Part shown: positions 9,917 through 57,883 of the stretch, piece by piece | Numbering within the stretch: the stretch's first letter is position 1 | Layout of the letters: every line of letters starts with the position of its first letter | DNA from: Rhododendron vialii | Lineage: Eukaryota > Streptophyta > Magnoliopsida > Ericales > Ericaceae | Length of the DNA stretch: 64,000 nt | Assembly: GCF_030253575.1 (NCBI RefSeq) | Contig: NC_080561.1 | Location: 11,208,001-11,272,000 of the forward strand | Reading direction: 5' to 3' | Notes under the pieces: generated by a model | What the model saw: the letters and a program-made list of their open reading frames with translations, nothing else | Database searches by the model: none | Told to the model about the DNA's origin: nothing | Translations under genes and position numbers: made by a program

Positions 9917-9920
9917 AATT

Positions 9921-9938
9921 TGGCACGCCCGGTGGGAC
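9921..9938 (+). other. Primer-binding site region of element 2
   Basis: TGGCACGCCCGGTGGGAC follows the LTR edge by four bases and precedes gag, in the place and form usual for Tat-type elements. The priming tRNA is not assigned. Confidence 0.55.
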
Positions 9939-9982
9939 CTCTCTACCTCTCATCTCTTTCTCCAAAGTCAAGTTCTTCACAA

Positions 9983-17122: not shown

Positions 17123-20100
17123 TTGCAAGCTCAGTCAGTCACAACGGAAGACTCTCCGTGCTCCCTTTTGGCCGCTTTACGATCAGGATCACCGTCAGTC
17201 ATCCAGGAAATTGAGTCTCCGGCATCGCCAACCTCCCCGTCCTCGTCAAGTTCATCCGGAACCTCCATTATGGCAGATCATCCGCAACCACTGAGTCTCG
17301 AAACCATACTCATGAACATCCAGAACAGCATCGCCACCATGCAGCAAAGGGGTGCTCAGACTGATGCGAATCTCACTAGGCTCAATGACCTTATCAACAC
17401 TCGTCTTCCGCCAGCTGCAGAAGTGGGAGGCGAGGTCGATGAGGACGACCATGCAGAACCAATCTTTGTTGAAGACCCTAACCATGCAGGGCGGATCATA
17501 ATTCAGCCCAACCCGAGAGAGGCTCACCCGGAGGCAACGAATCTGAACCTCACTGTGGCAAGACCCGTTTTGGATCCTAACATGACTGCTCTCATGGCAA
17601 AGATCGTCAAGCTGGAGGAATCTGTGTCCAAGTCTGAAAAGATCAGCGCCGGGGGAATTGATTTAGATCGCCTCTGCTTGTATCCCAATGCTAAGCTCCC
17701 CGACAAGTTTAAGATGCCTGACCTCGCCAAGTTTGATGGGAGTGGTGACCCGAAGACTCATCTCTATGGGTACCATGCCGCCATGAAACTCTTGGCTGTT
17801 GAACCCGAGGCCATGTCCCAACTGTTCCCTCAGACTTTCTCAGGACCCGCTTTTCACTGGTTTTTGTCGCTTGACATTGCTAAGAGGAGGACGTGGGAAG
17901 ACATCGGTGCTGCGTTTATTTCGCAGTATAGTTACAACTCCCAGCTCAAGATGACAACCCGAGAGCTTGAGTCCACGAAAATGGAAGCTAAAGAATCCTT
18001 TGCGGATTTTGTCAAAAGATGGAGGACGAAGGCTGCTCAGATGACCGATCGCCCGAGTGAGAGAGATCAGCTCCGAATCATCTCTCGCAATCTTTAGCCT
18101 GATTATGCTAGACATTTGGTTCTTGTCCAAGCCTCCTCGAACTTTGATACTTTCTTCGAATCTGGTATGGCCATCGAAGATGCGCTGCAAAGTGGGATTC
18201 TGTCGAGAGGGGAGCCCTCTAACCCTTCGAAACCAAAGCCTCGCGTCTACTCAGGGAACACCAATGCGTTGTTTGGCAGTGGGGGATCTTCCAACACAGC
18301 AACCAGCGGCACTAACGCCTCCTCTTCCAATACCGCCAATCGCGTCGCCGAGATTAACCAGGTGCAAACCCCTCAAAATAACCGACCTCGCACTCAGCCC
18401 CGCAGTTTCTCTGCGTTTGAAGCTCCATTGTCTTCCGTTATGGAGAAGTTTATCCAGTCAGGGCATCTGAAACCCCTTGACCCGACTCCTCTGCCTAAGA
18501 ACCCTTCACCCAACTTCAAAGCTAACCTTTATTGTGCTTACCACCAAGGGGCTGGTCATCTTACGGACTCTTGTTTCCGTCTCCGACATGCGATTCAGGA
18601 TCTTATAGATGAAGGGACTCTCCACGCTCCACCTCCACCCACTCAAAAACCAAACATCCTTTCCAACTCCCTACCAAAGCATAATCCTACTCCCCGTATC
18701 AACCAAATATCCATCAGTTCCACTTATATCAACCCTAGCTCTACTATATTCAACCCCACTGACCATATAACCTCAACAAACCAACCCAAGCCGGTCGTGC
18801 CCATCCCTTCTCAGCCCGAAGCCGAGATTTTCTACATCCATCTTGAAGAAGGACAGTCGTCCAATCCCGATGTGCCTCTCGCACGCCTGCAGAATGGAAC
18901 GTTTGTGTTCAATGCCTCCATCGGCGACCTGTTTCACCGGTCCATCCCCTCTGTGCAGCTCAACTCTGCTTCTTCCTTGGACAGGCCGTATTTTGATGTG
19001 ACGGATCCAAACTCCTCTCTGAATTTGATAAGCCGCTTTAGGTCTGCTGTCCCTTTTCTACCGGAACGGCAGGTTGATATGCAAGCAGTAGGATGGGCTA
19101 TCGCCAATAACGATGATTATGCAGCCCCCATAATCAATGAATGGACGGAGCTAGAGTTAGACGGTTTCCCCCAGAACCCCGAATATGTCCCATTTAACCA
19201 TGCTTGGTATGACGCCTGGATGGCTAATTATGAGGCAGACATGCTTGACCCTTTGAATGGATTCTCTTTGAACATGCTTTTTCAACAGCCTGAACCTGTT
19301 TTGCCTGAGGAGGAGTACTATTGGGATCCCGAGCCCGCGTGGCAGTTTCCATTAGAGTTTGACCTCAATCCTCTTCAAGGATATGCTCTGCCCAATCATG
19401 AGGTTCAATTCATAGAAGAGGGTCTCGTTCAGGAGGAAACTCGTGTCTTGGGGGAATGCTTTCTCCATTCTACTCTTGACAGGCTGGTTGACTCTGTAAC
19501 TAACACTGAGTACGATCCTACATTTTACATCATTAGCGAGGAACTCTCGCACCCCGCACCGCCTTATCCAACCGAGGAAGATCACAGCATTATGGTTACG
19601 GACCTTGTTCCGCCAGTAGATCTCTGGGATGTTGATGATGTGGTTAATATCCAAGTTGGGTCCGAGGTTTGGACTGTCAACCGCTCTCTTGCCGATGGGG
19701 GACTCTGGGACGTCCCATTCATTGCTAACACGGAGCCCATTGGGGAGGCTGTAGCTATTAAGGATCCAGATTTCTAGGAGTCGCTGCTGTGGAACGATTT
19801 AGCTGAAGACCTCGATCTAGGCATGGAAGCACCTATAGCCCCACCGCCATCTGACAAAGGAAAACGCAAATTGGGGGAAGTCCCTGCTGATCTTTGGGAT
19901 GACCGTCAAGACCTTCAAGCGATACCCTCTTTAGAGAACGTTCTCAACGTTACGAGGAGTGGACGAATTTTTCAGCCTTCCAATCTTCAGGCTGGGAGCT
20001 CGTCCAACTCTTCTAACAAAAGGAACGAACCTTCTGCATTCTCAAGGTCTGCACTGTTTGAGGTACCTCCTAGCTCCCCGAATGAGGACATGATTCAGAG

Positions 20101-23100
20101 GCAGCTGGAGCAAATTCTTGCTGCTATATCACTCTGGGGACTAATCTGTTCCTCCCGCGAACATCGTCAGAAGTTCTGCCATACTCTCTCTCGCCTTGAG
20201 ATCCAACCGGATGTCACGCCTGAAGCAATGATATCTATAATTCTCCCGCCTACTTCTAGGCACACCGTGGTCTTCACCGACAAGGATCTACCGATCGAAG
20301 GGGTTGATCACAATCGCCCCTTGCACATCACTGTTAAGTGTAAAGGACTCTGGATTCCCACTGTTCTGATCGACAACGGATCGGCAATCAATGTTTGCCC
20401 GTTGAGAGTGGCTTACCGTTTGGGACTGGCCAAGAAAGACTTTGCACCTTCCAATCTGGCTGTTAAGGCATACGATAGCACTCGTCGCGTGGTCGAGGGC
20501 ACGCTCGTGCTCAAACTTGACGCTGAGGGATTTGAGATGGATGTTGAGTTCCATGTGGTCGACATCCCCGCCACATTTAATCTTCTGCTGGGAAGGCCGT
20601 GGCTTCACAGATCTGACATCATGGCTGTACCGTCTACTCTTCATAAGAAAGTTATGTTGGGACTCCCTACCGGTACTTTGACTATCTGCGGGGACTCTGG
20701 CATTCGCCCGCTTAAGGAAGATGGCACACCTGTTTTGGGGATTGCACACGGCGAGGAAGACGTTGATCTCGGGAGTTTCTCTTTCGACACTTCTGGTTCG
20801 GTTTTGGCTATCAACGTGGATGAGGACTTCATCATAAGCTCTGTTGCCTTAGACATCATGAGGAGGATGTCCTATTTACCTGGTCTTGGTCTTGGGATTC
20901 ACCAACAAGGGATCCCGGAGTTCCCTGCCTTTCCTTCCTGCGAGGGCCGCTTTGGTTTGGAGTACTCTTCCTTTACCAAGGATGCCAAAAGAAGGAAATG
21001 CACGGGAAAGCCTCGATCTCTCTATGGTGAACCCGACAGCTACTTTGTGCGCGAAGTGGGGAATGACGTCTACACTGGACAGCCTGAGCCTTTTATCGAT
21101 TCAGTCACTGGGGATTTGCTGCCTGGGTTTGAGGTTTTCGCTGATGACACTTGGTCCTCCAGTGATGAAGAACCAGCAAGGGCGGAATTCAAAAGGAAGC
21201 TCAGCCAGCCTAAGCTGAAGACTGATTGGCTGATGTCTTTTAACCAAGGGAGCTTGAAGCAGCTGTTTTGTGAGTTCTCCCAGGTGGGTTTGGCCAAGGA
21301 AGCTGAAGAGGCCGAAGTGTTCATGCTCGGTTCCGACGACCTCAAGGATCCCCTCTCCCTCATTACAGAAGCAAAGGGTAGCCTTAAAAATTGCATTTTC
21401 AAACCACGCCTTACTTGCATTGATGATGTACCAGAGTCTGACACTGAGTCTGTTGAGTCGTCTGAGTCTAAGTCTAGCTCTGAGTCGGAGTTTGTGCCTC
21501 TCGGCCCTCCACGTCATGGCTTTTACTTCGAGTTTGATTCCCTTGTACTTGGCGACCCTGCAGGGTCTTATGAAATGAAAGAATCCTCTTCTGACTACTT
21601 GAATGATCTTTATATAAACTGTGTCGACCCCGACGATGAAGGGATAGATTTCGATGGGGACATTCCCAAGGAAATCCGTGCCCTCATCGAGAGGGAAGAT
21701 GAAAGGCATGCTCAGCCGTTAAAAGAAAAAATAGTCTTAATAAACTTGAAAGACGAGAATGATCCCCGAATGGTTCAGGTGGGCTCCACTTTATCCTCAG
21801 AGGAACATCATGATTTCAAAGAACTACTCTCAGAATTCAGTGATATCTTCGCGTGGTCTCATCAAGACATGCCCGGCATCGACCCAGAAATAGTGGAGCA
21901 TCGAATCCCCTTACTGCCAAATGCCAAACCCGTGAAACAGAAGTTGAGACGAATGAGGCCGGATTGGGTACAGAGGATCAAGGAGGAGGTCACTAAACAG
22001 ATCGACGCCGGTTTTCTTATGGTTTCTCAATACCCCGCATGGGTTGCTAACATTGTTCCAGTTCCTAAAAAGAATGGACAAATTCGAGTGTGCGTGGACT
22101 TCATGGATTTGAACAAGGCAAGCCCCAAGGACGATTTTCCCCTGCCACATATCGATGTACTGGTTGACAATACGGCGGGCCATGCCCTGCTTTCATTCAT
22201 GGATGGTTTCTTCAGATATAACCAGATTCTTATGGCACCAGAAGACCGTGAGAAGACGACTTTCATCACTGAATGGGGGACTTATTGTTACTTGGTCATG
22301 CCGTTTGGTTTGAAAAATGCTGGTCCTACCTACCAGAGAGCCGCTATGACCATTCTGCACGACATGATGCACAAAGAGGTTGAGGTCTACGTAGACGATA
22401 TGATTGCTAAGTCAAAAACTCGGGAGGGGCATGTTCCTGTATTGAGGAAGTTTTTCGAGAGGCTCCGAAAGTTCTGCATGCGTCTCAATCCACAGAAATG
22501 CACCTTTGGGGTCACAGCAGGTAAGATGCTCGGTTTCATGATCACTTCGCGTGGGATTGAGGTCGATCCGTCCAAGATCAAAGCGGTGCTTGAAATGAAG
22601 CCACCAGAGACTGAAAAGGGAGTGCGAAGCTTTTTGGGGAAAATTCAGTTCATCAGCAGATTCATCGCCAAGTTAACCTTAACTTGCGAGCCGATGTTTC
22701 GTCTACTCAAAAAGGACACCCCGTTCGTATGGTCGGACAGATGTCAGGCGGCCTTTATGTCCATTCAGAGCTATCTGCAAAACTCGCATGTCTTAATGCC
22801 ACCAGTGCCCGGAAAGCCCTTGATTTTATACCTATCCGTGAGTTCTACATCCATGGGATGCTTGCTAGCTCAAGAGGGTGACCAGGGAGTTGAGAAGGCC
22901 GTTTATTACTTAAGTAAGAAAATGGTTGGGTCTGAAGAGCGCTACACCGCCTTGGAAAAAACGTGCTGGGCTTTGGTTTGGGCTTCTAAGAAGTTGAGAC
23001 ACTACATGCTGGCTTACCCAGTGAAATTGATTTCTCGAATGGATCCACTCAAGTATTTGTTTGAGAAACCGGCTCTCACTGGTAAGTTAGCACGCTGGTT

Positions 23101-24988
23101 GCTCCTTCTGGCAGAATTCGATCTCGAATACGTCACGAGGAAGTCGGTAAAGGGGCGAGCCATCGCTGAATTTTTGGCTGATCACCCTGTCGATGGACCG
23201 GAAGATGCAGATTTTGTGTTTCCAGATGAAGAAGTGCTAACAGTTGTCGAGGACGTCTGGACTCTGTACTTCGATGGGGCGGCCAATCAGAAAGGATTTG
23301 GGATCGGGATTTTGCTAGTCGCCCCCGATGGTTCTCATATTCCGCTTGCATTCAAGCTTAACTTCGATGTTACAAACAACCAAGCTGAATATGAAGACTG
23401 TATCGTGGGTATGGAGGCTGCACTCACGCTCGGCGTAGAAAGACTCGAAGTCATCGGGGACTCTAATCTTGTTGTATCTCAGGCCAATGGGGACTGGAAA
23501 GTACGTGAAGAGGGGTTGAAACCTTATCATCAGGATTTGGAGGGGTTAATTCCTCGCTTTAACAAAGTGACTTTCACCCACATCACTCGTTTGAAGAACC
23601 GATTTGCCGATGCACTCGCGACTTTGGCTTCCATGGTCGAATTACCTTTGGGAGTCAAACTCCGCCCAGTCTTAATTGAACAACGGGACCGCTCCGCTTA
23701 TCAATACGTCAACGCCATCGATGATGTCAATGATGGCCTACCCTGGTACCATGACATATGGAACTTTGTCGAGAGTGGTTCGTATCCGGCCGAGGCCTCC
23801 AAAAAGGATCAGACTGCATTGCGGAGAATATCTGCCCAGTACGTCATTTGTGGGGGAAAGTTATACAGGAGATCTCATTGTGGGATGCACAAGCTCTGTG
23901 TCAACGGGACTGAGGCCGTCAGAATCATGGAAGAGATCCACGAGGGGGTCTGTGGTCCCCATATGAGCGGCATCATGCTGGCCAGGAAAATCTTGCGTCA
24001 AGGTTATTTCTGGTCTACTATGGAATCTCAGTGCGTGGATTATGTGCGGTGATGTCACAAATGCCAAATTCATGCTAATCTAATGCATGTTCCACCCTCT
24101 AACCTGTTTGGCATGGCTTCGCCTTGGCCTTTCTCTGTATGGGGCATCGATGTCATCGGCATGGTCAGACCATCCGCATCAAATGGTCATAGGTTCACCC
24201 TCGTGGCCATAGATTATTTTACCAAATGGGTGGAGGCCGAATCTTATAAAACCCTAACGGCGGTTCAAGTCGCTCACTTCATCAGGAAAAACATCATCTA
24301 CCGATATGGGGTTCCGCAAGCGTTCGTATCAGACAATGGGAGTCATTTCAAAGGCAGGGTCCTGGAGCTCTTCGAAGAATTCAAGATCCAAGTCCATCAC
24401 TCAACGGTCTATCGTCCCCAAACAAATGGTGCGGTTGAAGCGGCCAACAAGAATGTCGAGACAATCATCAAAAAGTCCGCAGAGTCCGCCAGGGACTGGC
24501 ACGAGCAACTGCCATTAGCTCTTTGGGGTTATCGAACGTCGATTCGAACATCAACGGGGGCAACCCCCTATTCCTTGGTCTACGGGATGGAAGCAGTTCT
24601 CTCTATAGAGCTTGAGGTGTCATCTTTGAGGATCATGGTAGAATCGGAACTCTCGGAATCTGAATGGCTCAGTGGGAGATTCATTGAACTCATGCTTTTT
24701 GATGAGAGGAGGCTCCGGGCTTTATATCATGTTCAGGGGTATTAGCGGAGAATCGCCCGGGCATTCAACAAAAAAGTGAAGTCTAGAGACTTGGTCGAAG
24801 GAGACATGGTCACAAAAGAGATTCGGGCACCAGTTTTTGACCCCCGCGGCAAATTTCGACCCAAGCGTTCCGGACCTTACATCATCAAGACCATCCTTTC
24901 TGGGGGAGCGGCTCAGCTCATTGATCTTGACGACAACGAATTCAGCTCTCTGGTTAACCTGGATCAACTCAAACGATACTATCCCTGA
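17123..24988 (+). mobile_element. Ogre-like Tat element 3: gag-pol body
   Basis: Gag probably starts at the ATG near 17270 (MADHPQPLSL). It has a gag core (about 17700-18060) and a Tat-type CAYH...C zinc motif (about 18535-18580). A long acidic linker follows, then a protease (LIDNGSAINV, about 20370), RT (VCVDFMDLNK about 22095, YVDDM about 22390), a retroviral-type RNase H, and a second ancestral-type RNase H (LYFDGAANQ, about 23270). The integrase has an HHCC finger (about 23935-24060), core motifs (IDVIG about 24150, DNGSHF about 24335, VEAANK about 24435) and a C-terminal domain ending at 24988. The dual RNase H and the layout fit the Tat lineage, Ogre-like group. The body is broken in about four places. 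Two antisense genes and a candidate 3' LTR follow, giving an element of about 18 kb. Confidence 0.9.
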
Positions 24989-25507: not shown

Positions 25508-26794
25508 TCAATTGTTGTTTTGCCTGCTTGCGATTTCCCTTCTTAGCCATGTTTGATATCGGTGCGTAAGTTCCGTACTAAAGTCTGGGTCAGCTCCTCC
25601 GAGTTGCCGCAGGCCCCAATCGTGCTCATACCCTCTCAGATTCTGGGCAGTGAAAGTGTGGACTTGGAAATCTTCAGTCCCAGCTCGGTGGAGTCCTTGG
25701 CTCATTCCTAGCTGACGAAGGATGCGTCCGGGGATGTAGAATGTGAAAGCGGTCAGCCCAGCTATCACTACTCTCTCGAATCCTGCAGAACTCAGGGCCA
25801 TGTCTGGAATGTTTAAGGCTTCATGCCGCCATGTGATCTCGTTCGGCAGCATTTCTCTCATAAATGCGCACCATTGATTCACAGACATTTCCAGATAGAT
25901 CATACCCCGCTGGTGCATTCAGTCGGGCAGATGAGGCCAGTTTACTTCCGGTGCTGTAAGCAATCCCAATTTGTTAGATAGCCAGAGCTGCATGAGTAAA
26001 AAAACAAGTGAGAAGTTACATAAAGCTTGAGAGAAAAGACAAGTAAGGAACTTCGATATAGCCTTAGCTGAGAGATGAGGTAAAAACAGAATGTGCGAAA
26101 GCCGGAAAAAGGTGAGCTGAGTGAGAACTAAGCTAACATGCAGTAGTAGTGGACTACCGCTGAACACGTCTGCTTGGCCGGAAGAAACCAAATCCAAACC
26201 TATGAGTGTCTCTGCCAGAACCAGTGGTACCACATTTCTTCGGGCACCCATTTGAGCGGCGACGCTCACTAGCATGGGGTTGACTTGTCCATTCGGAGAT
26301 ACAAGTAAATAAGCAGCTAGCACGCCGATCGCCAGGGCGAATCGACGCCGAGCCTGCACGGCTACATTCTCTACATCCCCCTCTGGCCCGTACCACTCCA
26401 TTAGGCGCATGATGTTGATTTGCCCTCCAGTTAGCAAACTTTCGGCCGCTCCCCGGGTGATGCCAAGACTTGACTGTAAGAGCTTCGACATGCTTTTCCT
26501 ATAAGGCGGCACGACAATCACGCTCGAGGCGACTCCTTGGAGGTATGCTTGGAATTCCTCCACGGCCGGGCACAGCTCATTAACCCCAAACCTGAACACG
26601 TGAACCTCTGGGTCCCAGAATTGTAGGGCTGCCCTCAGAAACTCAGGACGGACCTTCACATTGCGGAGGAAGCGGAATGCGGCCAGCCCGTGAAACCGGA
26701 ATGACAGCCAATCTCCAGCAACAAAGGCCGTGAGCCATGGGCTAATTAAGGCTGGAAGATTATTTGCCATTCTGTTTTCTCGTGGGACTCTCAA
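25508..26794 (-). pseudogene. DUF7745/PMD-related gene, antisense within element 3, about one break
   Basis: This minus-strand coding region lies between pol of element 3 and the PMD gene. The start is the ATG at 26794 or, more likely, 26770 (MANNLPALIS). The signature FWDPEVHVFRFG...ELCP..EEF (26620-26558) is typical of the plant DUF7745 family, a relative of the plant mobile domain found in genes and in Ty3 elements. A gap of about 145 bp with GT...AG edges falls near 26135-25993, in the place where such genes carry an intron. Coding similarity resumes after it and runs to 25508. There appears to be about one break. The protein has no known enzymatic role. Its upstream region holds two copies of the paired TCGCGCGA motif. 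The family call is from memory of the motif, not a search. Confidence 0.6.
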
Positions 26795-27036
26795 ACTGTG
26801 GGAGGAATGCCTTTCATTTGCAGAATATTGGCCTATTTATAGGCAGAATGCTTAGAGTGTCGTCCTTTCCCAGTACAAACATCCATGCCATGTGGCATTC
26901 TCTTCTCCAAAAGTGCAGGCGTCCCCTGCAATGCCCCCCCTCTGAAGTACTCTGAGCAGTTAAAGGTTGGTGACGAGGCCTGGTCGTCCAAAAGTTTGAG
27001 ATGGTCAAATAAAGGTGGCCTGGCACGGCCCGACCA

Positions 27037-27112
27037 TCGCGCGACGATCCCACTCCATCGCGCGAGTGAGAAAATCCATTCCATCGCGCGACATACTCAA
27101 TCACTCGCGCGA
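27037..27112. promoter_or_regulatory. Two TCGCGCGA-N13-TCGCGCGA pairs upstream of the DUF7745-like gene
   Basis: Exact palindromes TCGCGCGA start at 27037, 27058, 27084 and 27105. Within each pair the start-to-start distance is 21 bp, and the 13-bp spacers are unrelated to each other. They lie about 240-340 bp upstream of the ATG of the minus-strand DUF7745-like gene. Their regulatory role is inferred from position and from recurrence upstream of other promoters of the same element. Confidence 0.6.
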
Positions 27113-28051
27113 TGGTTTAGCCTGCATTTTGACAGATTGAACCAGCTACTGTCCAATTTTGGTCGTTTCCTATTCCAAGGGTACTTTTGCAACTTTTATG
27201 GATCCAGCAAGTCACTATGAGCATATGCAACCATATCCAAGCATCGGATTCGAGATATCGCGTTTAACGAGGTTTTTGAATCCTCGGTGGCTCGTTTCAA
27301 GGCCAAATGTGCATTTCGGGAGGTCGAAACTCGGTCCCGAGGGTCGTGTCCTTTTCTCTCAGGCCGTACAAGTCATGATGACCTAATGTGACTGTACGGA
27401 GGTGTCGGTTTCAGTCCGGGACATAATAGAGTCATGTTTTTCAATCTCGTGTCCCTTTTGTGTCCTTTGTAAGGTTTTTGGGCAATTTTGCGTTTCGGGA
27501 AGTATTTCTCGAATCTGTCAATTCTCTCAGGTCATTTTGTATATATACATGACCTCACGGAAGTGTCCCTTTTATCCAAGTTGGGGTATTTTAGGTTTTG
27601 ACTTGCGAATGTCCAATATTTCGTATCCTCGTATCCTGACCGTATCCTGGAGTACATTTTCGTTTTTCCACCGAGTCAATTATGTCTGTGCGTATGTGTG
27701 CGTTTGTGAACGGTCCCAGTACGTTATCAATGCAAGCATGGTATTAATGGCAAGCGTTTATTTATTCTAAGTTCATTACGAGAGTAAAATGAACTGAAAA
27801 TGCAAATTTTATAGCTAATCCATATCTATCCATGTCAAAGTAAGGGAGACTACTGTGCGTACGGCGCTTCGGCCGCTAACTCATGTCAGCGCAGGCACAC
27901 TCGCCCATCAAGTCAAAAAGGCACACATGCCCCAAAAACATGTATCAAGTATCAACTAAGGCACTCCGGCCTTCCATCTATCTACGCAGGCGCGTAGGCC
28001 CAAAAGCAAAATCAAAGATGTGGAAAGACAAATGAGGCTTCTTAGTAGCCC
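27113..28051. other. Intergenic segment between the two antisense genes, no gene seen
   Basis: I see only short unsupported ORFs. The sequence would contain the 3' untranslated part of the PMD gene and the distal promoter of the DUF7745-like gene. No repeats beyond short phrases were noted. Confidence 0.4.
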
Positions 28052-31000
28052 TCACTCCTCTCCGAACCAATCACCATCTCCGTCGTCGTCGTCGTCGTCG
28101 TCTCTCTCTTTAGGATCCTGTCTAAAACCAGGATCATCGGCTGAGTCATCCGAGCCGCTGCTGTCAGGCGTCTCCTCGTCCTCCTCTTCTTCTTCTCCAT
28201 CCTCTTCCTCTTCTTCCTCAGAATCCTCGGGTAGGATTAGCCGCTTCTTGCGGACCGGCTCGTCTTGCGAGGGCCTTTGGCGCATCTTCAATTGATACCT
28301 CTCCTCTGCGCGCACCACGGCCTCTCGGGCCGCCTCCTCACTCGCAGCGGGTGGCTGTATACCCCGCGTCTGTGGTCTAGTAGTAGGTGGAGGAGCAGGA
28401 GTCTTGCTTGCTAGCTTCTTTTGTGGAGGCTCTCTCGCGCTCTTCCTCCTAGGAGCCGCCCGTCTCTGTGTCTGCATTGTAAAATTTTGCACATTTAGTA
28501 TATGTTCTATGTATTGTATGTTTGCAGGCAGGTACAATCAATTTCAAAGTTGACGGCAATTAAAGTACACTATGTATCGAGCAAAGCATGCATATGTCAA
28601 GTATCGAATGTAGGAATGTATCGCTTCTCTAAAGGATATACCTGAGATCTCTGAGCTGCCGGTGATGGGTATCGCAAGTCCAAAGGCAGGCCACTTGCCG
28701 CCCGCCTTATCACGTTCTCCAATGCGAGCATACGCCGAACAGCTTCGTTCGCCCACTCATTGGGCACCTGCAAGGATAACTTGAACATAAGTAATGGAGC
28801 AATATTTCAAGACTTTATGGAAGTACAATCAATGAAGGGTACAATGTCTTACCGGCACGGTGACAGGCGCTGGCTCAACTCTGGCAGGAACTAAGTGTAG
28901 CTCGGCTGGATTACCCTGAGAATCCACCACAGCTATATGCCATGTCAACTCTGGCGGCCCACCTCTCACAGGTCCACTCGGACCCCGCCTCGCGCGACTT
29001 TCACCACTGCTCTGCCTTGCAGTGACGGCTCTCCTCTCCTCAGCAGCTCCACGGGCCTGACTCCAGACTTCCCTGAACTCTCGCACTCTCAGTGGCCCCG
29101 CCAAACGCTCCCTCTGGTAGACTGCATAGTCCATGCCGAGACGCAGGTAGCGTGTCAAGTCGGTGTCAGGCCGCGTGAAGACCTCTAGCTCGGCCAACGT
29201 GTACTCCCCTGTGTGTGAGGCCCGTGGTGGAAGCGGCCCGGGCACCTGGAACCCTGCATGGCCAAGTGATTGGCGTGTCACTCGGTCGCCCAAGTACCAC
29301 TGCCAACCAAAAGCCGACTTCAGCAGCACTCTGCTCGCCGTCACGGCCCTGCTCCTGGCCAAGTACTCAAGCTCTGACTCTGCCACCCTCCAGGGATCCC
29401 ACTCTACCTGCACGAGCAAGCAATGCAAACGTCGGTCAGCGACAGCATTAAAGCAATAAAAAGGGATGCATATTTCTATTTGATAAAGTCATGTTATACC
29501 TGTGAGGGTCGGAGCTCGTCTAGGTATATCCTGAAGCCGTTCAGGTCGCCTCTCCCTCTTTTCTCTCCCATGTTCTTCTTACTCCAGATATGAGCACGCG
29601 GGAGGATCCCCAAGTCCAGGCTCTTCGTCACTGGACGACACATGTTCAAAACCTCGTAGGCCCAGAGCTGCACAGTCATCAAAGTTCAAATCATTAGTAT
29701 AATGCAGGAATATTTTTTTGAGCAGTTCATGTATTCAAATAAATAAGTGCATATTAGAAATGTGCTTTACTCAATTATGATCATACCTCCCAAATCCGCC
29801 AGTAGCCAGCAATGCTCATCTCAGTCCTCGACGAGTCCCCCATAAAGCCATAAGCTGCGCCAAGCGCAGCTCCTCCCCAGTTAAAGCGCGAGGCCGTCCT
29901 CAAATCCCTCAATGCGGGTAAGTACGATAGATGGACCTTGCTACGCCTGTTCGGATACAGGGTAGCACCAAAAAGATACAGCAAGTACGCCCGGGCCATC
30001 TGCTCCGCCTCTTGCTCCGTCGCCACCTCCTTTGTAAGGTACCTCATGAACTGTCCATATCTCGCCATCCCCTCTTCAACCTTGGGCACCTCTCCCAAGA
30101 ACCATTCCAGGGCCGCCTCGTCCTCCTGAATGCCCGAGTCAAACGGGATAGGGTCGCCTCTAACCCTCAAACCAGTAATCGCCGCAAAGTTAGTAGGCGT
30201 CACTGTCATCTCCCCGAGCGGTAGATGGAAGGTGTTAGTGGTATCCCTCCACCTCTCTGCGAGTGCAACCAAGACCGCATGGTCATTTCTGGCCCGAGTC
30301 AGGGTCTGTATGAACTCCCCAAAACTTGCCATATCCACCAACTGCCTCACCCTCTCCGGCAAACCCTGGTACAACGCCAAGGAGCTACAGGCGCCCCCGA
30401 AACCCCGGATGTCCCTCTGTCTCACTCTCTCCTGCATTAGACACGGAAACGAACAACAGAGGATATATCAGCATGTAAAGCTTTCATTCTCAAGTTCTAG
30501 GTAATCAATACAACTTGGCAGTACATGGTTGGTTCAAGTTATTATGTCTCATGCATGGCATTCAACGTGAACTATAGTGTCACTATTTGGATCTACTTCA
30601 AAGGATTACACTACGTTCCTCGGCACTTAAGCACATGCATTGTATTGAATTTGCAATCACGAAAGGAAATGAAGGAATTTCAGAAATTTACCTCAGCCCA
30701 GCTGCTCAAAATATGGGTATCGGGGTCTCGTAGAACAAGCTCAGGGTCATACTCCGCTTGCCGTGGCCTGTATGCCGCAAGACCCGATGGTACGAACAAA
30801 TGTGGTATTGGTGGCCTGTACCCCTCTGCTGAAAATGGAGCACGAGTCAAACCCTCTGCCTCTGACACTGCTGTCACTCTGGGCCCCTGTCCCCTCGCTC
30901 CAACCCGCTCCTCGGCCTCCGCGTCCCTCAAAACCTCCTCCTCAGCGGCCCTCGCCCTCTCGGCCCTCGCCGTAGCCTCTGAAGCGGCTATCTCCCGCTC

Positions 31001-31600
31001 TCGCTCCTCTCGAGCCTCCAACACGGCAGCCCCAATCATGGGATCCTCTTCAAGAAGCCGGGCTAATCTCTCGTCACTCAGAAACTCCGCAAGATCCTGT
31101 CTCGTGATCGGCTTGTGGCCCGATGACGTGGCCCCCGGCCGAAATAGCACCTCCTCCTCAGAAACCCCCGTGGTCCCCTCCTCCTCGGCCGCCACACCCT
31201 TGTCCTTCGCCGGATCCCTCGGCGGGGTCTCGCTCGGCCCAATGCCATCACCACCAACGCCATCACCACCGGCGCCACTGCTGCCGGTATCTCTGCCAAG
31301 ACCACGACCAACCACCACTGAACCACTCACGGCCACACTCGGGTCCAGTTGCTCGATTCCAGTACTCGCGGCCTCGACTCCCTCTGTTGCGCGACCCTCT
31401 GACACCATCGCGCGACGATCACCGTCATCGCCAGTCTCCTGCATGTGGCCCTGAATGCCATCGTCGCCGCCCGTGGACGTTGCACCAGTATCCGAGGCCT
31501 CTTCTAACTGCTGTTGGTCTCCTGTACCGACCCCCATGGGTTCGTCCTCTCGATGATCGACTACCTCTTCTCCACTGCCACCATTGCCGTGTTCCGCCAT
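28052..31600 (-). CDS. Intact plant mobile domain (PMD, MAIN/MAIL-like) gene, six exons
   Basis: Six minus-strand exons, each bounded by GT-AG and all in phase 0: 31600-30692, 30431-29787, 29667-29500, 29407-28853, 28767-28642 and 28471-28052. They sum to 2823 nt (940 residues) without interruption. The ATG at 31600 (MAEHGNG, good context) is preferred to the in-frame ATG at 31720. Exon 1 is low-complexity Gly/Glu/Ala with a charged helix. Exons 2-3 hold the plant mobile domain (PF10536): TNTFHLPLGEMTVTPTNF, ITGLRVRGDPI, then ARAYLLYLFGATLYPN, SRFNWGGAALGAAYGF and LWAYEVLNM. Exon 6 ends in a long Glu/Asp run, part of it from a GTC/GAC triplet tract (28083-28101). Host relatives (MAIN, MAIL1) are nuclear proteins needed for genome stability and transposon silencing, and PMDs are known inside Ty3 and MULE elements. 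This one lies antisense in element 3. Its role there is unknown. Confidence 0.85.
31387..31415. promoter_or_regulatory. Paired palindrome inside PMD exon 1
   Basis: TTGCGCGA (one base from the consensus, a C-to-T at a CpG) starts at 31387, with an exact TCGCGCGA at 31408, 21 bp on. It lies within the coding part of PMD exon 1, so it may be coincidental in function, but the spacing is that of the other pairs. Confidence 0.45.
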
Positions 31601-31813
31601 GGGTGAGTGATTGGGCGTGGATCCCTTTCGATTTTCGTGAAGAAATCGAAGGGTTTGAGTTGGGGTTTGGAGAGGTTGAGAGGAGTTTGAGAATTTTGAA
31701 GTTCGGAAACCGCTAAGCATCGGTTTCTGTTACGTCCCCGGGAAGAAAAGAGAAGAAAATGGGTTCGGGCCGGACCTGGACTGGTTTCAGACCCAGGCCC
31801 TGACGAAGAACCA

Positions 31814-31842
31814 TCGCGCGACGGTGTGAGTTCATCGCGCGA
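31814..31842. promoter_or_regulatory. Paired palindrome upstream of the PMD gene
   Basis: Exact TCGCGCGA copies start at 31814 and 31835, 21 bp apart. They sit 214-242 bp upstream of the preferred PMD start codon at 31600, where a promoter would be expected. No TATA box was identified with confidence. Confidence 0.55.
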
Positions 31843-31950
31843 TTGTACTATTGGGCCGATCGCTAGGTTTGGCCCAGGGTTCAGGCCCATTCGTGTATAT
31901 TGCTTCAATGAAGTCCAAGAGTCTTACTCGGGCTTTGCGATTGGATCCCT

Positions 31951-32398
31951 CAGCGACGATCCATCCGTCCAATTATCAAATCAGCGACGATCCATCCGTC
32001 CAATCATCAATCAGCGACGATCTATCCGTCCAATTTCAATCAGCGACGATCTATCCGTCCAATTATCAAATCAGCGACGATCCATCCGTCCAATTATCAA
32101 ATCAGCGACGATCTATCCGTCCAATCATCAATCAGCGACGATCTATCCGTCCAATTTCAATCAGCGACGATCTATCCGTCCAATTATCAAATCAGCGACG
32201 ATCCATCCGTCCAATTATCAAATCAGTGACGATCTATCCGTCCGATTATCAATCAGCGACGATCCATCCGTCCACTTATCAATCAGCGACGATCCATCCG
32301 TCCAATCATCAATTAGCGACGATCCATCCGTCTGATTATCAATCAGCGACGATCTATCCGTCCAATCATCAATCAAACGACGATCTATCCGTCCAAAT
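31951..32398. repeat. Tandem array of 15 units of about 30 bp in the 3' region of element 3
   Basis: Units begin CAGCGACGATCYATCCGTCC and end in one of three short tails (ATTATCAAAT, ATCATCAAT or ATTTCAAT), giving lengths of 31, 30 and 29 bp. Starts are at 31951, 31982, 32012, 32041, 32072, 32103, 32133, 32162, 32193, 32224, 32254, 32284, 32314, 32344 and 32374. The tail order 31-30-29-31 recurs, so a 121-bp higher-order unit is visible at 31951, 32072 and 32193. The array stops about 170 bp before the LTR. Tandem arrays in this place are a known habit of Tat/Ogre elements and can seed satellites. Confidence 0.92.
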
Positions 32399-32569
32399 TT
32401 GGATCAGCAATCAATCTGCTCACCGATCCGTTGGTGCACGGTATTTGTATATACTTGCTAGCACTTTTCGTTTAAATCGGCTTTTGGGTGGATTGGATGG
32501 GTGTCTAGAAATCTTTGACATTACCCGTACCAGCCAATGGTGCTCTGCGTGCCGTCAAAGAGGGACTAC

Positions 32570-34400
32570 TGTAGACACCCCAATCTGACTTCCCGATCGT
32601 TTTACTTTCTTCTTCGGTTTCTTGATTCCCCGATGATGAATCAGGTCGAAAACAGTCTCGAGAACTTGGAATGGCTTGAGTTTGGCATGTGAGGAACCCA
32701 TCCTTAGCCCTAAAACCCTTGAATCAGAACCTGGACCTTGGGTTTGATGGTCGCGCGACACACTAGGATCCTCGCGCGATGGTCCATTTGCCAGGTGGTG
32801 GTCAAAGTCAAAGCTTTGACCATTGACCCTCGCGGGGTTGGCTGGACCCTCGCGCGATGCTCTCACTTCATCGCGCGATGGTCAACACCTGTCATTTTCA
32901 CCCAGATTGCGTGGTGGTCAGGGGGCTACAGGCCTATATGACCCCGTTTTCATCGGCTGAACAGCGTTCTGGGGGGCTCCCCTTGCACCACCTCACCCCC
33001 CATTCTCCCATCACCTTTGCCACCCCACTTCTCCACCAAGCAATTATAACCAGCATTGTTGGCTGGTTACAAGGCCTTGGCTAGCCACCAACCAACCCTC
33101 TTTTCTATAAATACCCCCCCATGCTTCATTGCAAAGGGTTACAAAAATTCTCTCTAAGAAAGAAGAAGTAAAAGCTCAAGAACAAACACTTCACACCACA
33201 TTCTCTCCTACATAGTCACCTCCTAAGCCTCATCACCTCATTTAAGCCATCTCCAAGGGACTCAAGCAAAGGTATAATATCTTTCTGCTTACTGTTCGAA
33301 CCCCTGAGGGGGGCTGGCAGGGTCAAGGCTGGTAATCAATATCAGCTCTGGCCCTAAAGCTAGCAGGGTTTCAAGAGCCGTTACCTGGGACACCCTCGCG
33401 CGATGGTCCCATACACTCGCGCGACACTTCTGTCTGCGTGAGATTGGACCACGTGGGGAAGGGACCCTGGCCCTTAAGTTTATTGTTGTGTTCATAGTCT
33501 TTTAAAAGTCTTTTAAGGAGTTTTAGCTCACTGCTTTGCAAGTTTGCATGTTAAAAATCATCGTTTCAACCTAGTTCATAACTCCTCTTGGTTCGGAATG
33601 CTCTTGGGATGCTCTTGAACATGTCTCAGAGCCCTAAGTATGCAAAGCAATTCCTGGAAGTCCAGTCTGAACAATCGCGCGCCTGTGTCACTCTGTCGCG
33701 CGATGGTTCTTTGTTTTCCAGGGACTGCCCTTGCATGAGCAGCTTGGCCTTGGCCTTTGTTTAGATACCCCCACTGTTTAGGGGTTGTGCTTTCAAAATA
33801 TTTCTATCTACTTGCCGTAATATTGTTTACTTTCAAGTGCTTATAAACTGCTTGGTTTGCACCTGGGTGAGCACTGGTCCTTCCAGAGCCCAGAAGGGGG
33901 TAAAATCCAAAACATTGGTGGAACGTCAACACTCGCGCCAGTGTATGGTAGTGTCGCGCGATGGTTGGCTTGCATGTAGATGGGTTCACGCATGCAAGCT
34001 GGCTGTTTGTTCGTGCCAAAATCATACACGGCACTGCTTTGATGAACGACCGATGTTTTGAATTTTATTCCATTTATTGTATGTCATCTCACTAATCCAT
34101 GTCATATCTTATCACATCCCGCAAATTGTTACAGTTTTAAATCCCCGATTAACTGTTCCCCTGCCCTAATTGGCTAAAAATTGATTAATCAAATAGAATC
34201 GCAAACAAACATTTTCGCAAATGCCTAAGTAGAGACCGATCTCCGGATTGGGCGAGAGGGGTGCCATAAAACCCTTCCCCTCTCGTAACCTGGCTCCCGA
34301 ACCCAGATATGGTTATGACGGACTGGTTCCTTAAACTTTTTCAAATCAAACAGCGCGGCAAGTGCTTCGAAATACGGTTACTTGGGTGTCGGACCTTCAA
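32570..34400 (+). repeat. LTR assigned to element 3 (candidate 3' LTR)
   Basis: The left edge TGTAGACACCCC follows a purine-rich tract (AAAGAGGGAC), as a polypurine tract would. A TATA box (TATAAATA) at 33106-33113 gives plus-strand polarity with a U3 of about 540 bp. The right edge is uncertain, near GGACCTTCAAACCCGAG at about 34400. Five TCGCGCGA pairs lie inside. The likeness of the right edge to an LTR-to-primer-site transition means a 5' LTR of another, lost element cannot be excluded. The tandem array and purine tract just upstream favour a 3' LTR. The partner LTR is not in the window. Confidence 0.6.
32751..33961. promoter_or_regulatory. Five TCGCGCGA pairs within the LTR
   Basis: Pairs start at 32751/32772, 32850/32871, 33395/33416, 33675/33696 and 33933/33954, each exactly 21 bp apart. 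The first members of the last two pairs have changed bases (TCGCGCGC, TCGCGCCA) but keep the spacing. The first two pairs lie about 230-355 bp upstream of the LTR TATA box and the rest lie downstream of it. A further half-like TCGCGGGG is at 32830. Confidence 0.65.
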
Positions 34401-34406
34401 ACCCGA

Positions 34407-35951
34407 GTGGCGACTCTGTAATTTGCGAGCGCTTGCTTCCCCGCTCGCGCTCCCTCGACCCGGGCCCCTTGCGTCTCGGAATCCGGAAATTCCAAAAAGG
34501 GCACGCATGCCCACATCTAGCTACACACCTTGCGTATTAGTCACTCCACTCCTTAACCTCCACTATCTACTTAAACCCCTTGTCATTCCACTGCCTTAAC
34601 CTCCATTGCACTGCCTTAACCTGACAAAAACTCGAAATTACTATTTTCCTTCTGCTACTTACCCATCAATCAATGATGTATTTTCTACCTACAAGCCTTG
34701 CATATTAGTCACTCAACTTCCTTAACCTCCACTATCTACATAAACCCCTTGTCATTCCACTGCCTTAGCTTCCACTGCCTTAGCCTCCACTATCTCCTTT
34801 GCCACCATTTTACTCTACCACTTAAACCTCCACTTTGTGACCCCACTGCTTAAGATTGACAAGGACATCACAAGCACATTATCAAGACGAACTTTGGTTT
34901 CTCCGTGTAAACAAAACCATCATTTTCCTACTTTCTAAGTCTGCTGCAAATGCCTTTATTTTCCTGAACTACTGTATGTGAGCTTTAAGTCATGCAATTG
35001 CAGAGTAGCCAGATAGTTGCCAGCAAGAACTACTTCTCCTACACTTTTATTCCCATGGCTTTACTGTAAAAAAGCACTAGATTTGCTCTGTTGCTGATCT
35101 ATCAGTTTGCTCTTTCATCTTCTCTTTTTGGGTTCTCACGGCTCTAGAAGCTTTGACTGTCTGGTATATCTATTCTTTTGTCATTTCTGTTTATATTCAT
35201 TAATGGTACGTGATGTCCATAAACTCTTGTTCTTATGCTGCTTTATTTAGGTGCTAATCCTGTTCCTTACTTCTATTAGAACACAATTTTTGTGCATGCA
35301 CATAGCATCCCATTATGCTATGTATCCCTGGCTACATAAGATATAGCTGTTACGTTTTTGTTCATGATTTATATTGCTACTTCAGTTGCTGCATAAATCA
35401 GCTTCATTTCCTGTACTCTTAGTTCTATGCCTTTACTGTCAAAAAATCCTCCATAAGCTCATCTCCTGTACTTTTCTTTGCATATTTCTAATGGAGTTTT
35501 TGCCAACTGGTTTTCTTAACTCTTCATCATCATCTTCCTATTTAGCTTTGCTTCAGCATTCTTTTCTTGCATGAGTATTCTGCCTTAATGTATCTTAATC
35601 ATGGCCAAGAAAAAACTAAAAATGAAGGAATCTGTGATCTTTGAGCTGAAGTTTCCAAAAAAAATTCACATTAGCTTGACCCCCTCATAGTAAAGGCATG
35701 TAATCCATCACATGCACACAGATTCCGACCACATGCAAGAACTAGAATACTCATTATGCAAAAAGTACATTTCCTAGACTATGTATAACCTTTAAGCCAT
35801 GCAATTGTAGAATGGTAAGATCATTGACAGCAAGAATTGTTTCTGCTGCACTTTCGTTCGCATGGCCTTACTGTGACCTATTCTGTTACTCAATACATGA
35901 AATTCATTCATTTTTTTTATTCACATCATGCATATTTATAATTTCGCTTAT

Positions 35952-35987
<36 letters not shown>

Positions 35988-36071
35988 AAGCAAAGAAAAT
36001 AGATTCTACTAAACTTGTATAGCATACTAATCTAATGAAAATCTTAATATTTTCATAGTCATTAAACGGAA
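34407..36071. other. Presumed 5' part of the Helitron, no intact gene, with local duplications
   Basis: This is AT-rich non-coding sequence. Two direct duplications are visible: about 34522-34596 with 34690-34768 (around CTTAACCTCCACTATCTAC), and about 34974-35068 with 35780-35876 (around TTTAAG.CATGCAATTG). An (AT)n run lies at about 35957-35983. The segment leads into an acceptor-like TTTTCATAG (36049-36057) and the Helitron Rep/helicase start at 36072, so its right part is probably a 5' intron or leader of that gene. I could not place a Helitron 5' end. Confidence 0.4.
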
Positions 36072-36086
36072 ATGTCTGAGAACAAG
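36072..36086 (+). pseudogene. First five codons of the Helitron Rep/helicase, cut off by element 4
   Basis: ATG at 36072 is followed by TCT GAG AAC AAG, and the chromovirus starts at 36087. After the far target duplication the Helitron frame continues at 44552 with CGT CGA AGA. The two sides are in the same reading frame and give a basic Helitron-like N-terminus. This places the insertion between codons 5 and 6. Confidence 0.65.
36082..36086. repeat. Target-site duplication of element 4, left copy (ACAAG)
   Basis: ACAAG abuts the left LTR and recurs at 44547-44551 right after the other LTR. An exact 5-bp match is the expected signature of Ty3 integrase. Confidence 0.9.
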
Positions 36087-37932
36087 TGTGAGACCCGACT
36101 CTTTTTTTTTAAAAAGAAAAGTAAATAAGTAGTCTTATTAAAAGTGATTTTTTTTGTTTTATGTGGGCCTCCAATGTGGATTCCTAAAACTATAGGGATG
36201 TATTTGTAAAAAAAAACAAAATGTGTGTGCTGGTGTGCACGTGGAAGGCAAAGGAAGTGCTTGTGTGCATGTGTGGGATATATATATCTTCTAATAGAAA
36301 AAAAAAATACAAACAGAAGAGAGAAAAAAAGAAACGTACAGGAGAGAAAAAAAGAAAACGCAAAGAGAAGGATCGAAGAAGAGAGGATTTGCGTTAACGG
36401 AAGTTCTAATCTCGGTAGGTAACTCTTCGTCTCTTTTGCTTATTGATCAGTTAATATGTCTTGTAATTGAGATGGGTTGTTCTTGGGCATTTTTATTTGG
36501 AAAGAAAGGCCATGTTAGTAAATGATGGAAGTGGTTTGTTAAGTGAAATAATCTCTTTGTATGCAGATGATAGTTTAATTTCCTACCTAGCTGATAATTT
36601 TACTTGACTTGCCATAAAAAGGAAGAACCCTAGATTTGAACAGAGGTTTTGGAAACAGTTAATGGTTACGGGAATGGATCGAATTGGTGTAATCTGTGGT
36701 GACTTAGGCCTAGGTATTAACAATATCACTGGCCTTCAATTTAATTGAATGGTTTTATGCGCACTAATTTGTGGAATTGGACAAAAGAGCAGTAGACAAG
36801 GAAGAAGGAAAAAAACAAAAATAAAAGGGGTTTGGTTAGCAACGTGGAATAATAGTTCCTCAATGGCTGTCAAATAAGTATTTTTATCATGTGTGGTCGA
36901 GCTTATGGAAGTCTGTTACACACTAATTGCTATTCGCCTAATCGGATAACTTTTTGATTATGAAATTGACACTCTCTTATGTGGTCCGATGTACTGAATT
37001 TTATTACGTGGTTAGTCTAGAAGGAATTTGATGCTAGAGTAATGGTTGCAATCCTTTCAATTTATGGGTATCTTTGAAATCGTACTCACATGTATGGATT
37101 TATGTGTTACTCGTCAGGTTCGGAGGCGACTACGAGCACCGTGACTCCACGTAGGGAGTGAGCTCGTGTTGGTACCTTTTGGGTTGGGCCTCGAGGTGGG
37201 TGTTCTTATTTTTAATAGCAGAAGATGAGACACGGTGTAGAGTTATTTTTTGTTCGTATTGAAATGGTTAATATTTGGCTTGAGCTCCTAAGCGAGAATA
37301 TGATCGTAGCCTTAGTGGCGTTATAATATGGCCTTAGTGGCGTTATTGATTATTGCCTTAATGGTGTGAATAAATATTGCCTTAGTGGCATGACGACTAT
37401 TGCCGTAGTGGCGTAAAGAGTATTACCTTGTGCCGTAGATATGGGAATTGCCTTAGTGGCTTTATAAATTGCCTTAGTGGCGTTATAAGAATTACGTAAC
37501 GGAAAGTTACTGCGGGGCTGAATAATCTTGTTTAAATTGTTTGATAGCACTTGTCTTTATTGCTTCTCTTATTACGAATAAGAACATTCACTGGGCAAGT
37601 TGACAGCTTACACCCCCACAGTGTTTTCTTTTCAGGTGCGTGACGGCACGCGGGTCCACTGCAGAGTCTAGACTGGAGTTGTGTATATAGTGGTCTAGCT
37701 TTTTGACTCTTTTGATTATGTGCCTATTTTTGGAGCTTGTATATGTTGTAAATACCCGTGGGCACGTCTTGTATGACAGTTGTTTCCGTATATTTGCAAG
37801 TTAAGTTTTTTTTTTTTTTTGAGTTGGACGCTTGGCTGGTGTTTTTATTTACTGTTTGAGCAGGGCCAAGGTGTGGGTCCATCCCATTTGGAAAATAATT
37901 TAGCGTGGTATTTTCCAAGATGGGGTGTGACA
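36087..37932 (+). repeat. 5' LTR of chromovirus element 4 (1846 bp)
   Basis: It begins TGTGAGACCCGACTC and ends GGTGTGACA. It matches 42704-44546 along its whole length, with roughly 40 substitutions and several small indels by eye, about 2-2.5 percent. Under commonly assumed plant rates that is of the order of one million years. Both LTRs contain an array of eight GCCTTAGTGGCGTTAT-like units. Confidence 0.93.
37308..37492 (+). repeat. Eight-unit GCCTTAGTGGCGTTAT array inside the LTR
   Basis: About eight units of 20-25 bp share the core GCCTTAGTGGCGT with varied tails. The matching array in the other LTR is at about 43919-44105. Several units differ between the two LTRs (for example CCTTGTGCCG here against CCTTAGTGGCG there), so the array appears to change faster than the rest of the LTR. 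Confidence 0.8.
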
Positions 37933-37937
37933 ATTTT

Positions 37938-37950
37938 TGGTATCAGAGCC
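37938..37950 (+). other. Primer-binding site of element 4 (initiator tRNA-Met)
   Basis: TGGTATCAGAGCC, five bases after the LTR, is the standard plant site complementary to initiator tRNA-Met. Confidence 0.9.
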
Positions 37951-38072
37951 AATGGTTATTTGGTTCTGTAGACATTTTTTAGTCTAGAACTTGCAGTGGA
38001 CCATAGGGAGTCTGTTGAGTTGGTGGTTAGCTTATCTTTGCATGCGTGGTAAATATTGAACTGCAATGATAT

Positions 38073-42668: not shown

Positions 42669-42703
42669 ATTTCGGGGCGAAATTCTTTTAACGGGAGGAT
42701 AAT

Positions 42704-44546: not shown

Positions 44547-44551
44547 ACAAG
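44547..44551. repeat. Target-site duplication of element 4, right copy (ACAAG)
   Basis: Exact copy of 36082-36086, directly after the 3' LTR. Confidence 0.9.

Positions 44552-57604: not shown

Positions 57605-57635
<31 letters not shown>

Positions 57636-57852: not shown

Positions 57853-57883
<31 letters not shown>

What the first reader, a model, noticed from the sequence alone, without database searches (positions are those of the whole stretch)
27037..33961. Nine pairs of the palindrome TCGCGCGA at an exact 21-bp start-to-start spacing
Pairs start at 27037, 27084, 31387, 31814, 32751, 32850, 33395, 33675 and 33933. Each has a 13-bp spacer, and spacer sequence is not conserved. Three pairs have one changed member but keep the spacing. 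Two full helical turns put both palindromes on the same face of DNA. An 8-mer with three CpGs should be rare. I found 16 exact copies, all within 27.0-34.0 kb, and only one (28990, in a PMD exon) is unpaired. Conserved spacing without conserved spacer sequence suggests binding by a protein with two DNA-reading units rather than copying of a longer repeat.
Basis: seen in the sequence. Interest (0 to 1): 0.88.

Follow-up and report, generated by a model that had tools for sequence, protein, structure and literature searches.

The report
Paired 37-bp sites in plant retrotransposon
A plant retrotransposon carries nine copies of an unusually precise paired DNA site, placed around its own promoters and mostly outside its coding sequence, which looks like a private switch read by a protein, possibly one that the element itself encodes.

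Summary
The pairs are real: 16 exact TCGCGCGA (0.16 expected) and nine pairs at 21 bp, none elsewhere in the window. Two corrections: the seventh pair starts at 33396, and the spacers are partly conserved. Oriented, the pairs form a 37-bp site, roughly ACCA-TCGCGCGA-N13-TCGCGCGA-YGGT with a CTCA-like centre. Every pair has an exact 12-mer TCGCGCGATGGT (9 of 9; random best 4). Similarity ends about 4 bp outside, so this is not a long copied repeat; copying of the short unit is not excluded.

The sites lie in a Tat-clade Ty3/gypsy element (PMD suggests Ogre) with two antisense plant-mobile-domain genes: one open over six predicted exons (940 aa), one with an in-frame stop. Two sites lie 196-271 bp upstream of gene B's TATA, two 228-355 bp upstream of the LTR TATA, one 214 bp upstream of gene A's ATG, three downstream in the LTR, one in a gene A exon.

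Best reading: a bipartite protein-binding site marking the element's promoters, perhaps read by its own PMD proteins; a host factor is nearly as likely. No binding data, other copies or host genome. The paper searches found no earlier description.

The parts
27033..27069 (+). Site 1 (37-bp unit), upstream of antisense gene B; anchor TCGCGCGATGGT on the - strand at 27033-27044
27080..27116 (+). Site 2, upstream of antisense gene B; anchor at 27105-27116 (+)
31383..31419 (+). Site 3, in exon 1 of antisense gene A; left member TTGCGCGA, anchor facing inward (31404-31415, -)
31810..31846 (-). Site 4, 214 bp upstream of the gene A ATG; anchor 31810-31821 (-)
32747..32783 (-). Site 5, LTR upstream of the TATA box; anchor 32772-32783 (+)
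32846..32882 (+). Site 6, LTR upstream of the TATA box; anchor 32871-32882 (+)
33392..33428 (+). Site 7, LTR downstream of the TATA box; anchor facing inward (33396-33407, +)
33671..33707 (-). Site 8, LTR downstream of the TATA box; one member TCGCGCGC, anchor 33696-33707 (+)
33929..33965 (-). Site 9, LTR downstream of the TATA box; one member TCGCGCCA, anchor 33954-33965 (+)
28052..31600 (-). Antisense gene A: plant mobile domain protein, 6 predicted exons (31600-30692, 30431-29787, 29667-29500, 29407-28853, 28767-28642, 28471-28052), 940 aa without a stop, GT-AG splice sites, acidic C-terminal tail
   Evidence: exon limits chosen by eye, splice dinucleotides checked by script; PMD E = 2.4e-43
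25511..26770 (-). Antisense gene B: DUF7745/PMD-like gene, ATG at 26770, a probable intron, broken by a TGA at 25919-25921
   Evidence: Pfam matches of both pieces lie below the curated cut-offs
26835..26841 (-). TATA-like box upstream of gene B
33106..33112 (+). TATA-like box of the LTR (CTATAAATA)
32570..34400 (+). Probable 3' LTR, starting TGTAGACACC after a purine-rich stretch; the 3' end is a guess and no second LTR copy is in the window
   Evidence: inference
31950..32408 (+). CpG-rich tandem array, about 30-bp unit, about 15 copies, between gene A and the LTR
17123..24985 (+). gag-pol of the host element (gag; RT, RNase H, a second RNase H, then integrase) in one frame, interrupted by in-frame stops at 18095, 19775 (perhaps the natural gag end), 24050 and 24743

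Best explanation
The pairs are nine copies of a bipartite protein-binding site, about 37 bp long. It has an anchor (TCGCGCGATGGT), a second palindrome two helical turns away, and a partly conserved centre. The site marks the promoters of one Tat-clade retrotransposon: the LTR, and the upstream regions of two antisense plant-mobile-domain (PMD) genes. Shown: the sites, their spacing, anchor and centre; their positions; the element's clade; the open reading frame of gene A. Inferred: a protein with two-fold symmetry, or two dimers on one face of the DNA, reads the site (about 0.8). It acts on sense and antisense transcription together (about 0.6). It is one or both of the element's own PMD proteins, acting as a family-specific activator or anti-silencer, in the way VANC acts on VANDAL elements (about 0.38 overall).
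For: Count and spacing far above chance. The 12-mer anchor is in 9 of 9 pairs; in 20,000 random sets the best shared tetramer reached at most 4 of 9. Spacer and flanks are conserved in column-specific fashion; each pair's spacer and flanks score in the top 0.04-2.3% of sampled background windows under a matrix built from the other eight (orientations had been chosen on all nine). No homology 5-30 bp outside: 0.281 against 0.287. Two sites lie 196-271 bp upstream of gene B's TATA, two lie 228-355 bp upstream of the LTR TATA, one lies 214 bp upstream of gene A's ATG (positions). 8 of 9 pairs are non-coding, P = 0.002 under approximate element and exon limits. 52 of 54 CpGs are kept. Gene A is an open 940-aa PMD gene while gag-pol and gene B carry in-frame stops. 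PMD clades A1 and A2 are found only in Gypsy elements (PMC5418596, passages read) and PMD occurs in 57% of Ogre elements (PMC6317226, passages read).
Against: No binding, expression or methylation data. I know of no PMD protein shown to bind DNA; [quoted passage not shown] Single-sequence structure models were useless (pLDDT 36 and 42) and no solved structure matched gene A exon 2 (only that exon was tried). Gene B is broken here. Three sites lie downstream of the LTR TATA and one in an exon, which is not pure promoter placement. Gene A has no TATA-like box in the scan. The centre is not oriented in one way to the anchor: in the alignment the anchor is left outer in 4 sites, right outer in 3 and inner in 2. 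CpG retention is partly an ascertainment effect, since sites were found by being intact. One copy of the element only.
Confidence: 0.38

Rival explanations
1. A host transcription factor reads the sites; the element has gathered them, as stress-inducible retrotransposons gather host response elements, and the PMD genes only share the promoter code.
For: The sites look like ordinary clustered regulatory elements in promoters; everything fits a host factor equally well. The host CAMTA family is described as needing a CGCG core (PMC7744605, passages read), and by eye each of the 18 half-sites, changed ones included, contains CGCG.
Against: Fuller consensus strings, recalled and taken from no call, do not fit: E2F TTTSSCGC is in none of the nine units; CAMTA VCGCGB is only at 33677, in a changed member. 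A bare CGCG core does not explain the exact 8-mer, the flank or the 21-bp spacing. The string TCGCGCGA is held by 7 papers and none of their titles concerns plant promoters (listing only). Other host factors are not excluded.
Confidence: 0.35
2. The unit is a short repeat that spread within the element by copying, with no present function; the palindromes are simply its most recognisable part.
For: Sites 4 and 8 match over 44 bp at 80% in inverted orientation. The 37-bp unit has recognisable spacers.
Against: Conservation is column-specific: the palindromes are almost perfect, with three CpGs each, while neighbouring columns have decayed to background. Spacing shows no indel in 9 of 9. A non-functional methylated repeat should lose CpGs first, but 52 of 54 remain where the motif-masked LTR has CpG o/e 0.44 (ascertainment applies).
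Confidence: 0.15
3. The unit works as an RNA or cruciform hairpin: an 8-12 bp stem with a 13-nt loop, for example in packaging or RNA stability.
For: Two copies of a palindrome can pair with each other; ACCA/TGGT flanks can extend the stem.
Against: On the nine-site alignment the stem shows no covariation above shuffles (score 0.037 against 0.051; 379 of 500 shuffles as high) and pairing is not above shuffles (82.4% against 83.6%). Of three changed half-sites one keeps a wobble pair on one strand and none is compensated. No Rfam match in 26000-36000 at gathering threshold.
Confidence: 0.05

Closest known systems
VANC/VANDAL anti-silencing system of Arabidopsis (VANC21 motif YAGTATTAY; PMC5735166 passages, PMC10398659 abstract)
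   Same: An element-specific short DNA motif, repeated in the element's non-coding regions, beside an element-encoded candidate regulator gene.
   Different: VANDAL is a MULE DNA transposon; VANC motifs are single, dense, in one orientation and often in tandem repeats. Here the motif is a fixed-geometry pair of CpG-rich palindromes, in an LTR retrotransposon, and the candidate protein is PMD. The VANC21 motif occurs once in the element and in none of the nine units.
Antisense accessory genes of Tat-clade elements (maize Grande gene23, Retand TRP28 ORFs; PMC7264820 passages, PMC11963269 abstract, part of section 11 and section 12)
   Same: Antisense genes between pol and the 3' LTR, tandem array in the same region, a proposed DNA-binding regulatory role; gene23 has its own promoter.
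   Different: Those antisense products are TRP28 or other proteins; these are PMD. The parts read report no cognate DNA sites.
MAIN/MAIL1/PP7L and the 'DOWN' motif CATGCAGTTT (PMC7156037, PMC9899485, passages)
   Same: PMD proteins acting together, linked to a promoter motif of genes that depend on them.
   Different: A host complex; the motif is unrelated and absent from the window; direct DNA contact is not known.
21-bp Tax-responsive repeats in the HTLV-1 LTR (recalled, not looked up)
   Same: Retroelement LTR sites serving an element-encoded trans-acting regulator.
   Different: There the repeat unit is 21 bp and host CREB is the DNA reader; here 21 bp is the distance between two palindromes.

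Membership tests
Tat clade of Ty3/gypsy (OTA) | Additional RNase H (aRH) domain in pol | tested here: met
   A second RNase H-type match (RVT_3, taken here as aRH) at 1151-1268 of the pol ORF, after RT (747-907) and RNase H (996-1099) and before a sub-threshold integrase zinc-binding match; integrase core in the next open piece
Tat clade of Ty3/gypsy (OTA) | Long pol-to-3'LTR region with extra ORFs | tested here: met
   About 7.6 kb from the pol end (24985) to the presumed LTR start (32570), with two antisense genes
Ogre lineage | Plant mobile domain in an extra ORF (57% of Ogre elements, PMC6317226) | tested here: met
   PMD E = 2.4e-43 in gene A; a correlate, not a definition
Ogre lineage | Primer-binding-site type, TSD length, RT phylogeny | not testable with these tools
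   No 5' LTR found in the window; no reference elements in the collections
VANC-type anti-silencing system | Element-encoded protein binds the motif | not testable with these tools
   Needs EMSA, DAP-seq or ChIP
VANC-type anti-silencing system | Motif enriched in non-coding parts of its own element, rare elsewhere | tested here: inconclusive
   8 of 9 pairs non-coding and none elsewhere in 64 kb; the host genome is not held
VANC-type anti-silencing system | Motifs dense, in one orientation, often in tandem arrays | tested here: not met
   Sites are dispersed, in both orientations; the nearby tandem array has another unit
CAMTA target site | CGCG core (PMC7744605, passages) | tested here: met
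   By eye in all 18 half-sites; a four-base core, so weak
CAMTA target site | Fuller consensus VCGCGB (recalled) | tested here: not met
   Only at 33677, in a changed member
E2F target site | Consensus TTTSSCGC (recalled) | tested here: not met
   In none of the nine units
RNA stem-loop element | Covariation in the stem | tested here: not met

The most novel reading that the evidence does not exclude
PMD proteins of Ogre/Tat retrotransposons are sequence-specific DNA-binding proteins that recognise paired sites two helical turns apart in their own element's LTR and antisense promoters. This would be a retrotransposon self-recognition system parallel to VANC. It would explain why these elements keep antisense PMD genes, and hint at what the host silencing proteins MAIN and MAIL1 descend from or resemble.
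Probability: 0.3. Interest if true: 0.85.

Novelty: new variant of a known kind. Interest (0 to 1): 0.6.

Why it matters
PMD genes occur in Gypsy elements across angiosperms (PMC5418596), and their host relatives MAIN and MAIL1 act in transposon silencing, but what PMD proteins recognise is not known from the papers read. A defined 37-bp candidate site beside an open PMD gene turns that into a direct binding assay. If the binding is real, it shows that LTR retrotransposons, and not only MULEs, can carry their own regulator and matching sites.

Tried and rejected
Genome-wide spacing test: no genome is held for this window. Relatives: PMD exon 2 and a three-row pol alignment against viral contigs found none; the pol alignment against genome contigs gave 2 distant loci from bacterial bins (30% and 45% identity), not used further. 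The 120 loci held contain 122 pairs with spacers of 0-30, 0-10 per length; 13 has 7, where the mean is 3.9 and two lengths have more, so there is no outstanding peak at 13. Partner-N13-anchor, exact, in viral contigs: 0. Structure prediction of exon 2 of gene A and of the first open piece of gene B, each without an alignment, gave pLDDT 36 and 42; no fold search was made on them. RNA hairpin: not supported. Long duplicated repeat: no flank homology. The sigma-70 promoter scan means nothing for a plant and is ignored. A second LTR copy was looked for by blastn within the window and not found, so age and LTR ends remain open. Papers with TCGCGCGA: 7 listed; with four 10-mers around it: 22, of which 20 were listed; no plant-retrotransposon title among those listed.

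Full report
Observation. The string TCGCGCGA occurs 16 times in the window, all between 27037 and 33961; dinucleotide shuffles give 0.16 +/- 0.42. Counting one-mismatch partners, nine pairs lie at exactly 21 bp. In a count of spaced words of 5-7 bases with gaps of 3-35, tandem repeats masked, this pair is the top one: for 5-mers 15 direct against 4 for the next, and 9 inverted against 6 for the next, an unrelated cluster mostly near 2 kb. The remaining copy (28990) is in exon 4 of the antisense PMD gene and lacks the flank described below.

The unit is longer than reported. When each pair is given its best orientation, spacer and 12-bp flanks carry 18.0 bits of information against 9.8 +/- 0.8 for random sets of nine given the same freedom; 0 of 150 reach it. 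The alignment reads ACCATCGCGCGACGnTCTCACACnnTCGCGCGAnnGT. Outside the palindromes one flank base and one spacer base are the same in 9 of 9. A matrix built from eight sites places the spacer and flanks of the ninth in the top 0.04% of sampled background windows for six sites, 0.08% and 0.5% for two, and 2.3% for site 5. The orientations were chosen on all nine, so this test is slightly favourable. The full matrix finds no further site in the window: the weakest site scores 38, the next window that is not a site 11.

An anchor. All nine pairs contain the exact 12-mer TCGCGCGATGGT on one strand, seven with TGGT facing outward and two inward. Random draws of 9 x 4 flanks reach at most 4 of 9 for any tetramer (20,000 draws). 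In the three pairs with a changed member the intact member carries TGGT. So a site seems to consist of one stronger half and one weaker half. The centre is not oriented in one way to the anchor: in the alignment the anchor is left outer in 4 sites, right outer in 3 and inner in 2.

Not a long duplication. Between 5 and 30 bp outside the palindromes the pairs are no more alike than random stretches (0.281 against 0.287). Sites 4 and 8 are the exception, matching over 44 bp at 80% in inverted orientation, so copying of the short unit may have played a part.

CpG. The half-sites keep 52 of 54 CpGs, while the rest of the presumed LTR has a CpG observed/expected ratio of 0.44 with raised TpG and CpA. 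This suggests selection or lack of methylation. It is weakened by the fact that the sites were noticed because they are intact.

Host element. The sites lie in a plant Ty3/gypsy element. Its pol has RT, RNase H and a second RNase H before the integrase, the mark of the Tat clade (PMC6317226, passages read); I take the RVT_3 match as that second domain. Antisense to gag-pol there are two genes. Gene A, modelled by eye from 31600 to 28052, has six exons with GT-AG splice sites and an open frame of 940 aa. It matches the plant mobile domain (E = 2.4e-43), has a basic stretch that looks like a nuclear signal (by eye), and has an acidic tail. Gene B starts at 26770, matches DUF7745 and PMD weakly, below the curated cut-offs, and is broken by one TGA. 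The gag-pol frame has in-frame stops at 18095, 19775 (perhaps the natural gag end), 24050 and 24743. A 30-bp tandem array of about 15 CpG-rich units lies between gene A and the LTR. The LTR seems to begin at 32570 with TGTAGACACC; its 3' end is a guess and no second copy was found in the window. PMD is found in 57% of Ogre elements (PMC6317226), so Ogre is the likely lineage, but the primer site and phylogeny could not be tested.

Placement. Gene B has a TATA-like box at 26841 on the minus strand; sites 1 and 2 lie 196-271 bp upstream. The LTR has a TATA-like box at 33106; sites 5 and 6 lie 228-355 bp upstream and sites 7, 8 and 9 downstream. Site 4 lies 214 bp upstream of gene A's ATG; the scan found no TATA-like box there. 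Site 3 is in gene A exon 1. Eight of nine are non-coding; with approximate limits of the element and its exons this has P = 0.002.

Mechanism. The geometry, two 8-bp palindromes with centres 21 bp apart and mirrored outer flanks, fits a protein or complex with two-fold symmetry, or two dimers on one face of the helix. The partly conserved centre suggests further contacts. Which protein is unknown. The element's own PMD proteins are the first candidates: PMD proteins MAIN and MAIL1 act together with PP7L and genes that depend on them share a promoter motif (PMC7156037, passages), although contact with chromatin is stated to be unknown (PMC9899485, passages). Two PMD clades occur only in Gypsy elements (PMC5418596, passages). 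Retrotransposon antisense proteins have been proposed as regulators (PMC7264820, passages; PMC11963269, abstract, the first part of section 11, section 12). VANC in Arabidopsis gives the working precedent for an element-encoded protein that reads family-specific motifs (PMC5735166, passages; PMC10398659, abstract). A host factor is nearly as likely. CAMTA proteins are described as needing a CGCG core (PMC7744605, passages), and each of the 18 half-sites has one; the fuller CAMTA consensus (recalled) is met only in one changed member and the E2F consensus (recalled) in none.

Rejected. A hairpin gets no support from covariation or Rfam. In viral contigs a 13-bp spacer is not an outstanding peak: 7 of 122 pairs, mean 3.9 per length, largest 10 (from a capped scan). 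The partner-N13-anchor form is absent from that collection. So the geometry is not a general property of this string.

Limits. One copy of one element, no host genome, no plant collection, no binding data. Searches for prior description; none of the listed papers appeared, from titles, abstract openings and the passages read, to describe this site.

Noticed in passing
31950-32408: Tandem array of about 15 copies of a 30-bp unit rich in CGACGATC, CpG observed/expected 2.23 and TpG 0.19, between antisense gene A and the LTR; sites 1 and 3 share the word GCGACGATC with it (by eye).
   Followed up: partly
28052-31600: The antisense PMD gene is open over six predicted exons although gag-pol and gene B of the same element carry stops.
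   Followed up: yes
9890-15903 and 2596-8274: Two further gypsy elements, one on each strand; the reading frame of the first breaks off near 15900, next to the element studied here, for which no 5' LTR was found in the window.
   Followed up: partly
36078-44547: What looks like a gypsy element with two LTR-like direct repeats (36078-37933 and 42695-44547, 97% identical).
   Followed up: no
45538-49226: Helitron-like replication protein and PIF1 helicase ORFs, perhaps one Helitron in pieces.
   Followed up: no
57400-58011: Two and a half copies of a 248-bp unit, 97-100% identical.
   Followed up: no
about 1860-2330: Cluster of inverted AAGTA/TAAGT words, the next most frequent inverted word pair in the window.
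   Followed up: no
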